Assembly: GCF_014695915.1 (NCBI RefSeq)
Contig: NZ_JACJPF010000044.1
Span: 62,001 to 126,000, forward strand
Source: Trichocoleus sp. FACHB-40
GTDB taxonomy: Bacteria; Cyanobacteriota; Cyanobacteriia; Cyanobacteriales; FACHB-T130
Direction of reading: 5' to 3'
Length of the DNA stretch: 64,000 nt
The notes under the pieces are model-generated. The model worked only from the letters and a program-made list of their open reading frames with translations, searched no databases and was not told the DNA's origin. A program made the translations under genes and the position numbers. Shown here piece after piece: positions 2,765-6,469 of the stretch (position 1 is the stretch's first letter; each line of letters starts with the position of its first letter).

Positions 2765-3085
2765 TCACAACTGGGTTCCGAATTCGTGCATAGCATCGAT
2801 AATCGGTTTCAAACTTTCCCCTAAAGGTGTTAGGGAATATTCCACTTTGGGGGGGATTTGCAGATAAACCTCCCGATGGATAATTCCGTCTTCCTCCATT
2901 TCTCTAAGCTGCTGCGTGAGCATCTTTTGGGTGATTCCATCCAATGCTCGTTGCAGTTCACCAAACCGTTTAACTCCTGTCAGTAGTTCTCCCCAAATAA
3001 AAAGCTTCCAGCGTCCGCTAATCGCTTTTAAAGCGGTTTCCGCCGGACAAGTCTTTCTCTCGTGACTCTGGCTTTTGGCTTCCAT
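2765..3085 (-). CDS. HxlR-type winged-helix transcriptional regulator
   Basis: A 106-residue HxlR/DUF24 protein. The N-terminal CPAETALKAISGRWK segment with its conserved Cys is followed by a winged helix (RFGELQRALDGITQKMLTQQL) and the wing EYSLTPLGESL. HxlR proteins act as dimers and often respond to reactive electrophiles or redox stress through the N-terminal Cys. The gene is divergent from a VOC/glyoxalase-fold gene with 133 bp between them, so control of that gene and of itself is a reasonable inference. It converges tightly on the adenylating enzyme, leaving no room for a separate terminator. Confidence 0.93.
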   Translation of the reverse strand: MEAKSQSHERKTCPAETALKAISGRWKLFIWGELLTGVKRFGELQRALDGITQKMLTQQLREMEEDGIIHREVYLQIPPKVEYSLTPLGESLKPIIDAMHEFGTQL

Positions 3086-3218: not shown

Positions 3219-3707
3219 ATGATTCCTGTCACAGGTTTAAACCATGCAGTCCTTTATGTTCGCGAACTTGAGCGTTCAGTTGAGTTTTATCAATCAGTTT
3301 TTGGTTTTGAAGAAGTATCTCGTCTACACGGAATGATGGCTTTTCTGCGAGTAAAAGGCTCAACAAATCATCACGATTTGGGATTAATAGCCTTGGGTTC
3401 TAATGCTCCATCTCCACCAAAGGGAACAATTGGACTTTATCATCTAGCGTGGGAAGTAAAGACAATTGAAGATTTAGCAAACTCTGCTCAAATTCTCAAA
3501 AATAACGGTTATTTTCGAGGCGCTAGCGATCACGGTGCCAGCAAATCAGTCTATGGTCAAGATCCTGATGGCTTAGAGTTTGAAATTACCTGGCATATCC
3601 CCCGCGAAGATTGGGGAAACTTTGAAAATCAGGCAATAGTTGCGCCGCTGAATTTGCAAAGCGAAATCGAGCGTTACGGTATAGAAAAATTAACAAGTAA
3701 AAATTGA
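3219..3707 (+). CDS. VOC superfamily (glyoxalase/dioxygenase fold) protein
   Basis: A 162-residue vicinal-oxygen-chelate protein with the paired beta-alpha-beta-beta-beta modules of the fold. Likely metal ligands are His9 (GLNHAVLYV), His75 (YHLAWEV) and Glu122 (DPDGLEFE). It resembles catechol-2,3-dioxygenase-like and fosfomycin/glyoxalase relatives, but the substrate is not predictable. Divergence from an HxlR regulator suggests an inducible detoxification role. A strong intrinsic terminator follows about 40 bp after the stop, so it is probably monocistronic. Confidence 0.88.
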   Translation: MIPVTGLNHAVLYVRELERSVEFYQSVFGFEEVSRLHGMMAFLRVKGSTNHHDLGLIALGSNAPSPPKGTIGLYHLAWEVKTIEDLANSAQILKNNGYFRGASDHGASKSVYGQDPDGLEFEITWHIPREDWGNFENQAIVAPLNLQSEIERYGIEKLTSKN

Positions 3708-4184: not shown

Positions 4185-4547
4185 ATGCAAATTATCCAAT
4201 GCCTCCACGCAGCTATTCTCGTTTCTGACTTAGAACGAGCAGAACATTTTTATGGCAAGGTACTGAGATTATCTAAAATAGATAGAACGCTTAAATTTCC
4301 GGGAGCATGGTATCAAGTCGGCGAGTTTCAAATTCACCTGATTGTCGCTGACTCTATACCATCGGATATGGTAAATTCCCAAAAGTTAGGTCGCAACCGA
4401 CACTTAGCTTTTTCTGTGGAAAATTTAGATGCTGCTAAAGAGCAGATTATAAATAACAACTGTCCCGTACAAATGAGTGCCTCTGGTAGAGCAGCTTTTT
4501 TCACCCAAGATCCAGACGGTAATATAATTGAATTGAGTCAGGTATAA
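4185..4547 (+). CDS. VOC family protein, single module
   Basis: A 120-residue VOC-fold protein, shorter than and distinct from the one at 3219. His8 (CLHAAILV), His73 (NRHLAFSV) and Glu116 (DGNIIEL) sit where metal ligands are expected. Homologous cyanobacterial proteins are usually annotated glyoxalase/bleomycin-resistance family; no substrate can be assigned. The nuclease-like gene starts 27 bp downstream on the same strand, so cotranscription is possible. Two VOC genes this close together may reflect related detoxification roles. Confidence 0.86.
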   Translation: MQIIQCLHAAILVSDLERAEHFYGKVLRLSKIDRTLKFPGAWYQVGEFQIHLIVADSIPSDMVNSQKLGRNRHLAFSVENLDAAKEQIINNNCPVQMSASGRAAFFTQDPDGNIIELSQV

Positions 4548-4574: not shown

Positions 4575-5198
4575 ATGGTTCAAACAATCCAAGCCAGTAA
4601 AATCACCATCGGATATCTGATAGATAAATTTGACTTGCAACGGGTGACTGATGACAAATTTTTTACCGAATGGTTAGCTGATTTGCCCGAAATATCCGAG
4701 ATAGAAAAAGAAACTTTAGACCGTATTAAAAGCAATTTTCTTCATTTGATTGAACGCCAGCAAATGATAGAAAGTATCGTCAAAATGGTGGTACTGTCTC
4801 CGCTGCTGGAATTGGCAGGTTTTTATCAGCCTCCTTTTGAAATAGACGGAGAAAAAGGAGTAGAAATCTTTGTCGAAGATGAGGATGAAGTTATTAAGGG
4901 AGATATTGATGTTCTGATTTTAGGAAACCATTTGTGGATATTCGTCATTGAGTCTAAACGTAGTAGCTTATCCCTAGACGCAGGGATACCCCAAGCTCTA
5001 GCTTATATGTTAGGCAACCCTAACCTGGAAAAACCGTGTTTTGGATTTGTCACAAATGGCAGCCATTTCATTTTTCTGAAGCTGATCAAACAAGATACAC
5101 CGCAATACGATATGTCCTATGATTTTTCAATCCGGCGAGGAAATGACTTGTATCGTGTTTTTAGTATACTAAAGCACCTTGCCGCCTTAGTGCAATGA
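4575..5198 (+). CDS. PD-(D/E)XK nuclease-like protein (HsdR N-terminal type)
   Basis: A 207-residue protein with a helical N-terminus and a PD-(D/E)XK core. The acidic GDIDVL (Asp110/Asp112) is followed by IESKR (Glu126, Lys128), then a conserved Gln140 helix and the FGFVTNGSHFIFLKL strand seen in N-terminal domains of type I restriction R subunits. There is no helicase or methyltransferase, so it is a stand-alone nuclease-like domain. The stop overlaps the next start by ATGA (5195-5198), implying translational coupling to the recombinase-like gene. A DNA-cleaving role is inferred from the intact catalytic signature only. Confidence 0.75.
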   Translation: MVQTIQASKITIGYLIDKFDLQRVTDDKFFTEWLADLPEISEIEKETLDRIKSNFLHLIERQQMIESIVKMVVLSPLLELAGFYQPPFEIDGEKGVEIFVEDEDEVIKGDIDVLILGNHLWIFVIESKRSSLSLDAGIPQALAYMLGNPNLEKPCFGFVTNGSHFIFLKLIKQDTPQYDMSYDFSIRRGNDLYRVFSILKHLAALVQ

Positions 5199-6469
5199 AT
5201 ATTATTGCGTATTTGTACAGCGATCCTTTGTTGGAATCAACACCTAATCCGAATGTGTGGGGTTGGGAGGTGGATCGGGTTTATCAAGATTTGGGAGGTC
5301 GGGATCAGCTGCAACAGTTGTTAAAAGATTGCCAAGCAGAACCTGCTGAATATCTGCTGATTCGACGCTTAGAAGAATTGGGAGACTCGGTTGATGAAGT
5401 ATGCGATCGCATCTCCAATCTTGAATCTCTCGGCATCAAACTCATTACCACTGAATCAGTAGGATATAATCAAACACCACTAGAATTATTAAAAGAAATT
5501 CAGGAAAGCCAGCGATCGCGCCGCCTCCGTAAAGGACACGCAAAGCGGCGACTCAAAGCTGCGCCGGGGCCGGGAAAAGCTCCTTACGGCTACAAGCGAG
5601 GTAAAGACCGTTACATACTTGACCGCAGTGCAGCGCCTGTGGTGAAAGATTTTTTTGAACAATATCTACTCTACGGTTCTCTGCGCGGTGCGGTGCGGTA
5701 TCTAGAAAAGAAATACGGTAAGAAAATTTCCGTATCTACCGGACAACGCTGGCTCTCTAACCCAGCTTATCGGGGTGACACAGCTTATCAAAATGGTCAG
5801 GTTCTATCGGATACTCATGTCCCCATTGTTACCAGGGAAGAAGCGGCACAGATTGACCGACTAATACGCCGTAACCGCCATTTGCCACCTCGCACAGCAA
5901 GTGCAAATCGTTCTTTGGCGGGGTTGGTTGTGTGTAGGGAGTGCCAGTTACCGATGACGATAACTCGCGTTACAACTCGTGGCAAACAGGGAGAATATCT
6001 CTATTTGCGTCCAACCAAGTGCAACAAACAGCCTAAATGTGGTGCAATTTCCTACGAGCAAGTTTTGCAAGAAACTATTGAGAGAATTTGTCAGGATTTA
6101 CCTTTTGCAGTAGCGGGGATGAATGTACCAAATATGAATGGAATTAAGAGCGCAATTACAAGTCAAATTGCTACAAAACAAGATATTTTAGCTCAATTGC
6201 CTAATTTAACTGCTAATGGCATTTTGGATTCAGAAACAGCAGATATACGCGCCTACAAACTTCGCACAGAAATATCTCAACTACAAGGAAAGTTAGCGAG
6301 TTTGCCGCCAGTAAATTTGCAAGCGATCGCGCAAGCAGTTTCCATCCCCCAATTCTGGCTAGACTTATCAGAATCAGAGCGAAGATTTTACTTTCGAGAA
6401 TTCATTCGTCAAATTGAAATTACCCGACAGGCGGAAGCGTGGCAGCTAAAGCTGGTTTTTATCTTTTAG
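5195..6469 (+). CDS. Serine-recombinase family protein (XisF-like), atypical catalytic domain
   Basis: A 424-residue protein with large serine recombinase architecture: a short N-terminal resolvase-like domain (1-90), a Recombinase domain (about 110-230; APGPGKAPYGYKR, WLSNPAYRG), a zinc-ribbon with VCRECQ and CNKQPKCG (about 245-285), and a C-terminal coiled coil. The catalytic domain is divergent. Where resolvases have Y-x-R-V-S it reads YLYSD, and where they have D-R-L-G-R it reads EELGD (residues 60-64), which would lose two arginines normally needed for strand exchange. It resembles the cyanobacterial XisF-like family. It is translationally coupled to the upstream nuclease-like gene. No att-like repeats were seen beside it. 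Confidence 0.8.
   Translation: MNIIAYLYSDPLLESTPNPNVWGWEVDRVYQDLGGRDQLQQLLKDCQAEPAEYLLIRRLEELGDSVDEVCDRISNLESLGIKLITTESVGYNQTPLELLKEIQESQRSRRLRKGHAKRRLKAAPGPGKAPYGYKRGKDRYILDRSAAPVVKDFFEQYLLYGSLRGAVRYLEKKYGKKISVSTGQRWLSNPAYRGDTAYQNGQVLSDTHVPIVTREEAAQIDRLIRRNRHLPPRTASANRSLAGLVVCRECQLPMTITRVTTRGKQGEYLYLRPTKCNKQPKCGAISYEQVLQETIERICQDLPFAVAGMNVPNMNGIKSAITSQIATKQDILAQLPNLTANGILDSETADIRAYKLRTEISQLQGKLASLPPVNLQAIAQAVSIPQFWLDLSESERRFYFREFIRQIEITRQAEAWQLKLVFIF

What the first reader, a model, noticed from the sequence alone, without database searches (positions are those of the whole stretch)
5195..6469. Serine-recombinase protein with an apparently degenerate catalytic domain, coupled to a nuclease-like gene
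The Recombinase domain, zinc-ribbon and coiled coil are intact. The N-terminal resolvase domain has YLYSD in place of Y-x-R-V-S and EELGD in place of D-R-L-G-R, so two arginines essential in gamma-delta resolvase appear replaced by acidic residues. The upstream gene (4575-5198) keeps a PD-(D/E)XK signature and overlaps the start by ATGA. One reading is a DNA-binding recombinase scaffold that recruits a separate nuclease.
Basis: partly seen in the sequence, partly recalled or inferred. Interest (0 to 1): 0.62.

Follow-up and report, generated by a model that had tools for sequence, protein, structure and literature searches.

The report
Ancient inactivated cyanobacterial serine recombinase
Many cyanobacteria of one large class carry, inherited from parent to offspring, a DNA-cutting recombinase whose cutting site has been dismantled and reversed in charge while its DNA-gripping parts are kept almost unchanged, so it has probably been turned into a DNA-binding protein for the cell's own use.

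Summary
In detail: ORF 5195-6469 has the large-serine-recombinase domains but a dismantled active site. The defect belongs to a whole orthologous family, not to this copy. In a sample of 386 genomes of the phylum a strong match (E <= 1e-80) is in 98/105 of the same order, 20/24 further class genomes outside one small-genome family, and 0/57 of that family. Of 99 members read, Arg8 is kept in 0, Ser10 in 1, Arg68 in 1, Arg71 in 0. Net charge of the site is -2 or -3 in 75 of 99, against +3/+4 in five XisF-model hits. Twenty other serine recombinases from the relatives keep Y-x-R-x-S in 20 and D-R-x-x-R in 18. The gene follows the organisms' families and all domains show dN/dS below 0.5. The nuclease coupling fails: adjacent in 5 of 100 genomes; the recurrent neighbour is a VOC/glyoxalase gene, 52 of 100. 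Best reading: a domesticated, catalytically dead, site-specific DNA-binding pseudo-recombinase, possibly a regulator. DNA target and function are unknown; ten paper searches found no description.

The parts
5195..6469 (+). catalytically dead large-serine-recombinase-like protein, 424 aa
   Evidence: inactivity inferred from residues
5195..5548 (+). resolvase-like N-terminal domain (residues 1-118), active site dismantled
   Evidence: Pfam Resolvase 28-119; alignment to gamma-delta and TP901-1 chains; mean pairwise identity 0.46 among a third of the members read
5210..5224 (+). Y-L-Y-S-D in place of Y-x-R-V-S (Arg8 and Ser10 lost)
   Evidence: R8 in 0 of 99 members, Ser10 in 1 of 99
5300..5302 (+). 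R36, equivalent of Arg45, the one active-site arginine retained
   Evidence: R in 96 of 100; register
5372..5386 (+). E-E-L-G-D in place of D-R-L-G-R (Arg68 and Arg71 lost)
   Evidence: R68 in 1 of 99, R71 in 0 of 99
5549..5914 (+). Recombinase domain (residues 119-240), the most conserved part
   Evidence: mean pairwise identity 0.69; dN/dS 0.01-0.18 in 11 close pairs
5915..6064 (+). zinc ribbon (residues 241-290); Cys247, 250, 276, 282
   Evidence: C247, C250, C276 in 100 of 100, C282 in 98 of 100
6065..6466 (+). coiled-coil region and C-terminal tail (residues 291-424)
   Evidence: two long helices 314-340 and 346-369 in the otherwise poor model (block pLDDT 65-88 for residues 311-370); profile match to A118 integrase reaches the tail
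4185..4547 (+). VOC/glyoxalase-superfamily gene, the recurrent upstream neighbour
   Evidence: Pfam Glyoxalase 2e-10; upstream on the same strand within 3 kb in 52 of 100 distinct genomes; H8, H51, E116 in 55 of 55 and H73 in 54 of 55 distinct sequences
4575..5198 (+). HSDR_N-like PD-(D/E)XK gene lying between the VOC gene and the recombinase gene in a few genomes

Best explanation
It is a domesticated, catalytically inactive serine recombinase. SHOWN: an orthologous, usually single-copy gene across the class; the catalytic serine and three of four active-site arginines lost in nearly every member read; Recombinase domain and zinc ligands near invariant; dN/dS well below 1 in every domain of the pairs tested; a VOC gene with its likely metal ligands intact as the recurrent upstream neighbour. 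INFERRED: the protein binds a specific DNA sequence through its Recombinase domain, zinc ribbon and coiled coil, probably as a dimer, without cutting it. The N-terminal domain, now acidic where the scissile phosphate used to sit, serves as a dimerisation or partner-docking module. The bound complex regulates transcription or organises a locus, perhaps with or for the VOC protein (I put the regulator step at about 0.35 on its own).
For: Strong match (E <= 1e-80) in 98/105 same-order and 20/24 other class genomes outside f41. Catalytic residues absent in the 99 members read, apart from one Ser10 and one Arg68. Net charge at six active-site positions -3 in 51, -2 in 24, -1 in 15, 0 in 7, -4 in 2 of 99, against +3 in four and +4 in one of five XisF-model hits. 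Control: motif kept in 20/20 and 18/20 of other serine recombinases from the relatives (these were picked from XisF-model hits, so recognisable members are favoured). C247, C250, C276, T182, W186, L187, Y192, R193, G194, H208, R222 in 100/100. dN/dS 0.04-0.32 in the N-terminal and 0.01-0.18 in the Recombinase domain over 11 close pairs. Labels of taxonomic family cluster on the tree: 45 changes, least possible 40, shuffled mean 83.4. Plasmid and phage records gave only weak hits (4 and 43) and viral contigs none. VOC gene upstream in 52/100, 250 nt or less away in 45 of 51 measured.
Against: No DNA target was found: no shared word or dyad upstream rose above shuffles. No usable structure: AlphaFold with 4 sequences gave mean pLDDT 46. 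The gene is dispensable: not found in f41, f44, G009 and G034/G056, and decayed in several genomes. The VOC gene was not seen upstream in nearly half the genomes, and co-occurrence outside f41 is weak (99 both, 19 and 5 one only, 6 neither; Fisher p 0.007, not corrected for kinship). The N-terminal domain is the least conserved part. DNA binding and inactivity are not measured.
Confidence: 0.66

Rival explanations
1. A modulator of other serine recombinases: it forms mixed dimers or tetramers with active XisF-type or element-borne recombinases, or occupies their sites, and so blocks or directs their recombination.
For: The resolvase-like N-terminal domain and the coiled-coil region (which make synaptic contacts in active enzymes, by recalled knowledge) show dN/dS well below 1. 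59 of 60 relatives have some XisF-model match, though many of these matches are this family itself.
Against: XisF over the curated cut-off is in only 4 of 60 relatives while this protein is in 56 of 60, so a standing partner is not evident. Recombinase-domain conservation across the class points to one fixed target rather than changing element sites (inference).
Confidence: 0.13
2. It is still a recombinase or nuclease with unconventional chemistry, for example an acidic, metal-using site or a displaced Ser/Thr nucleophile at position 9.
For: Acidic residues cluster where Ser10, Arg68 and Arg71 were; Arg45 is retained in 96 of 100 and position 9 is Ser or Thr in 69 of 100.
Against: No candidate nucleophile is invariant: position 9 is also I, R, C, Y, A, Q, H and others, and the acids vary in place. 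No good copy was found on plasmid, phage or viral records.
Confidence: 0.1
3. One reading: a DNA-binding scaffold that recruits the separate PD-(D/E)XK protein encoded just upstream.
For: ATGA overlap in the window; nuclease family signature; five genomes with VOC-nuclease-recombinase order.
Against: 95 of 100 distinct genomes lack the pairing, including the four other same-family genomes; the nuclease family occurs in many unlinked copies.
Confidence: 0.04
4. A decaying pseudogene.
For: Broken copies or remnants exist in some genomes (G196, G041, G184, G301).
Against: Open frames over the full length in most strong matches listed and dN/dS below 0.5 in every domain of 11 close pairs.
Confidence: 0.02

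Closest known systems
XisF (fdxN-element excision recombinase, NCBIfam NF041201) and phage large serine integrases such as A118 and TP901-1
   Same: Domain order resolvase - Recombinase - zinc ribbon - coiled coil; XisF model 133.6 bits over residues 36-410; family profile matches A118 integrase chains at 4e-12 and TP901-1 integrase at 2.5e-5.
   Different: Far below the XisF cut-off of 375 bits; the five XisF-model hits form their own branch (100*); active-site residues lost; no good plasmid, phage or viral copy found.
gamma-delta / Tn3 resolvases
   Same: N-terminal domain aligns at E 5e-5 to 2e-4 for the longer chains (0.02 for a shorter one); Arg45, Leu69 and Gly70 kept.
   Different: Ser10, Arg8, Arg68, Arg71 replaced; followed by a Recombinase domain, zinc ribbon and coiled coil, where these resolvases have a short helix-turn-helix (recalled).
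Vaccinia F16, listed in a table of PMC11980589 as a predicted inactive serine recombinase (one passage read)
   Same: Precedent for a conserved serine-recombinase relative predicted to be inactive.
   Different: Viral setting; listed as targeting nucleoli; its sequence and domain layout were not compared here.

Membership tests
Large serine recombinase superfamily (by descent) | Resolvase, Recombinase and zinc-ribbon domains in order | tested here: met
   All three Pfam models above cut-off for the window protein; of 39 scanned members Recombinase matches 39, Resolvase 32, Zn ribbon 32 at E <= 0.001
Large serine recombinase superfamily (by descent) | Catalytic Ser10 and Arg8, Arg68, Arg71 | tested here: not met
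   1/99, 0/99, 1/99, 0/99; control 20/20 and 18/20 motif retention
Large serine recombinase superfamily (by descent) | Arg45 | tested here: met
   96 of 100
Large serine recombinase superfamily (by descent) | Site-specific recombination activity | not testable with these tools
   needs biochemistry
XisF equivalog (NF041201) | Score over curated cut-off 375 bits | tested here: not met
   133.6 bits
XisF equivalog (NF041201) | Resides in an excisable element | tested here: inconclusive
   VOC gene upstream in 52/100 genomes and clustering by family speak against it; element ends were not sought around the copies
Recombinase-nuclease pair | Conserved adjacency to the HSDR_N-like gene | tested here: not met
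   5 of 100 distinct genomes
PD-(D/E)XK / HSDR_N protein (upstream gene) | D...ExK core | tested here: met
   D112 in 9 of 9 distinct sequences held, E126 and K128 in 8 of 9, the ninth cut short; Pfam and PADLOC matches

The most novel reading that the evidence does not exclude
An ancient, class-wide cyanobacterial locus-marking DNA-binding protein, made by disabling a large serine recombinase before the class diversified, that recognises a chromosomal sequence kept across the class and uses its charge-inverted former active site to dock a basic partner; the VOC protein is its operon partner in a regulatory or small-molecule-sensing unit.
Probability: 0.15. Interest if true: 0.82.

Novelty: new variant of a known kind. 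Interest (0 to 1): 0.6.

Why it matters
Serine recombinases are textbook mobile-element enzymes. A class-wide, vertically kept, charge-inverted version would be a clear case of a recombinase turned pseudoenzyme in bacteria. It sits unexplained in most sampled genomes of the class outside one small-genome family, probably annotated simply as a recombinase (the annotation is inferred, not looked up). The near-invariant Recombinase domain should make its DNA target discoverable with one ChIP or DAP-seq experiment. Catalytically dead large serine recombinases are also of practical interest as DNA-binding modules.

Tried and rejected
HIP1 (GCGATCGC) as target. The gene's absence from f41 resembles that of HIP1, so I counted HIP1 per genome. 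Rejected as a necessary link: HIP1-rich genomes lack an intact gene (f44: G229 8811, G315 6258, G378 7470; G009 7062; G101 2216, G147 2016, G358 2015, G405 1980), and HIP1-poor genomes hold it (G213 57, G364 42, G274 52, G126 74, G188 41). The reversed-pattern control contains CTAG and is a poor control.

Shared DNA motif near the gene: 7-mers, 8-mers and 4-bp dyads in 42 upstream and 42 downstream regions, one per family or named locus. Upstream, none rose above the maximum of 20 shuffles; the GCGA/TCGC dyad equalled it at 250 nt. Downstream that dyad reached 6 against a shuffle maximum of 5; it is HIP1 itself.

Tandem heptamers near the gene: 1.35% of bases near against 0.23% elsewhere in 63 loci, but only 11 of 63 loci contribute and intergenic content was not controlled; not pursued.

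Fusion to another domain: the long open frames of G372 and G416 proved to be open sequence upstream of the usual start, with the VOC gene separate. Other long frames were not checked.

Literature: ten searches found no description of this family. The two Synechococcus elongatus locus tags searched were guessed from recalled neighbours, so their silence means little. Passages of PMC8400943 concern recombinase fragments in Limnospira and did not bear on this.

Full report
What is there. ORF 5195-6469 (+, 424 aa) matches Pfam Resolvase only from residue 28 (E 3e-7), Recombinase (3e-12) and Zn_ribbon_recom (4e-7), all above cut-off. The first strand and catalytic loop fall outside the Resolvase match. 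The XisF model scores 133.6 bits against a cut-off of 375, so it is related to XisF but is not XisF. A profile of 39 relatives matches the A118 serine integrase (4e-12), TP901-1 integrase (2.5e-5) and gamma-delta resolvase (5e-5) in the PDB. The alignments printed for two gamma-delta chains place R36 at Arg45, E60 at Asp67, E61 at Arg68 and D64 at Arg71.

It is a family, not a damaged copy. Among 60 relatives, 56 have a match (E <= 0.001), usually one strong full-length one. In a sample of 386 genomes of the phylum, a strong match (E <= 1e-80) is present in 98 of 105 genomes of the same order and 20 of 24 further class genomes outside family f41. It is in 0 of 57 f41 genomes (1.6-3.7 Mb) and in none of the remaining 200 (by subtraction) outside the class, where the best E is 2e-13. 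These counts include four interrupted or partial cases (G196, G011, G041, G012). The tool's own tally of 193 of 386 is larger because it also counts weak hits. On a gene tree the tool's family labels cluster: 45 changes for 41 groups (XisF and the three named loci each counted as a group), least possible 40, shuffled mean 83.4, none of 200 shuffles as low. Three broken rows (L092, L102, L115) were left out of the tree; it was a quick search with 48 of 99 inner branches under 80 support. Plasmid records (72,556) gave 4 weak hits, none covering 80% of the query. Phage records (50,697) gave 43 weak hits, the 20 listed at 20.7-31.3% identity; one of these covers 90% of the query at 20.7%. A scan of viral contigs with two peptide patterns gave no relative.

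The active site is gone and its charge is inverted. The 100 distinct members read are those fetched: the best hits of each search, plus 60 regions I chose for spread. They are therefore not a random sample and lean towards the window's relatives. Of 99 (N-terminally truncated L102 left out), Arg8 is present in 0, Ser at position 10 in 1, Arg68 in 1 (G274, a long branch) and Arg71 in 0. Position 8 is Tyr in 93 of 100, position 10 is Asp or Glu in 83 of 100, and Arg45 is kept in 96 of 100. Summed charge over the six positions is -3 in 51, -2 in 24, -1 in 15, 0 in 7 and -4 in 2 of 99, against +3 in four and +4 in one of five XisF-model hits, four of which pass the XisF cut-off. As a control, 20 other serine recombinases from 19 of the 60 relatives keep Y-x-R-x-S in 20 of 20 and D-R-x-x-R in 18 of 20. 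They were picked from XisF-model hits, which favours recognisable members.

The rest is kept. Mean pairwise identity, over every third member, is 0.69 in the Recombinase domain, 0.46 N-terminal, 0.54 zinc ribbon, 0.53 coiled coil and tail. T182, W186, L187, Y192, R193, G194, H208, R222, C247, C250 and C276 are the same in 100 of 100, and C282 in 98. Over 11 close pairs (one genome used twice) dN/dS is 0.04-0.32 in the N-terminal domain, 0.01-0.18 in the Recombinase domain, 0.03-0.42 in the zinc ribbon and 0.05-0.27 in the tail. So the N-terminal domain is still under selection, presumably for something other than cutting DNA.

Neighbours. Of 101 rows, one genome being in twice (G110 and L054 are the same contig by length and position), the VOC/glyoxalase gene lies upstream on the same strand within 3 kb in 53, that is 52 of 100 distinct genomes, in 21 of 39 families. 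Some loci had only about 1.5 kb of flank, so this is a lower bound; two had it downstream. The HSDR_N-like gene lies upstream in 5 of 100, each time between the VOC gene and this gene. Where measured, the VOC-to-gene distance is 250 nt or less in 45 of 51 and 60 nt or less in 31 of 51; five of the six longer distances fit the five nuclease-bearing genomes. The VOC protein keeps H8, H51 and E116 in 55 of 55 and H73 in 54 of 55 distinct sequences, a plausible metal site (the ligand roles are recalled). Outside f41, co-occurrence of the two genes is 99 both, 19 only this gene, 5 only VOC, 6 neither (Fisher p 0.007, not corrected for kinship). The nuclease-like family matches 40 of 60 relatives, often in several unlinked copies.

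Mechanism. By descent and domain layout the protein should still bind DNA through its Recombinase domain and zinc ribbon, and interact through its coiled coil; without Ser10, Arg8, Arg68 and Arg71 it should not cut. The acidic former active site should no longer hold a DNA phosphate, so the N-terminal domain most likely serves dimerisation or docking. A regulator or locus-organising protein working with the VOC operon is the most economical use, but no target sequence was found and no usable model could be made. These functional steps are inference.

Dispensability and loss. The gene was not found in f41, f44 (three genomes), G009, G034/G056, G130 or G219 (nor in G033, a 61% complete genome). 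Remnants, some with stops, lie in G184, G301, G196, G101, G147 and G358. It is therefore useful but not essential across the class.

Known or new. The ten paper searches listed nothing on this family. The survey of cyanobacterial excision recombinases (PMC4874684, passages read) concerns element-borne enzymes. The review of recruited mobile elements (PMC8987985, passages read) describes serine recombinases exapted for DNA inversion and excision in the passages seen. A predicted inactive serine recombinase is listed for vaccinia F16 (PMC11980589, one passage). I class this as a new variant of a known kind: a pseudoenzyme branch of the large serine recombinases that meets the domain features and fails the catalytic ones.

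Noticed in passing
L175/L176 (G113), L177/L178 (G190): In two of 16 genomes of one genus the first 232 bp (G113) or 138 bp (G190) of the gene, starting within 4 bases of the ATG, occurs twice at 98% identity: one copy joined to the ancestral upstream side, the other being the full gene joined to the ancestral downstream side. In G113 (one contig) this looks like an insertion of about 15.6 kb at the gene's start with duplication of its 5' end; in G190 the two lie on separate contigs.
   Followed up: partly
L179 (G147), L180 (G101): In two genomes of the same genus the gene body is deleted from about codon 29-35 to just past the stop codon, with nearly the same right end, next to a short hairpin-like repeat.
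   Followed up: partly
window 4575-5198; G035, G006 and others: The HSDR_N-like gene belongs to a dispersed family with up to 13 matches in one genome and neighbouring copies in G006; its own mobility and role are unexplained.
   Followed up: no
upstream regions of several loci (L010, L012, L022, L023, L046, L114): Tandem heptamer-like repeats with different units lie next to the gene in several genera; not controlled for intergenic content.
   Followed up: partly
genomes outside the class in f46, f49, f50, f51: HIP1 (GCGATCGC) counts of about 970-2800 in eight genomes outside the class, well above the reversed-pattern control; two other f46 genomes have 133 and 478.
   Followed up: no
window 3219-3707 and 2765-3085: A second VOC/glyoxalase gene and an HxlR-type regulator gene (opposite strand) lie just upstream of the VOC-nuclease-recombinase run.
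   Followed up: no
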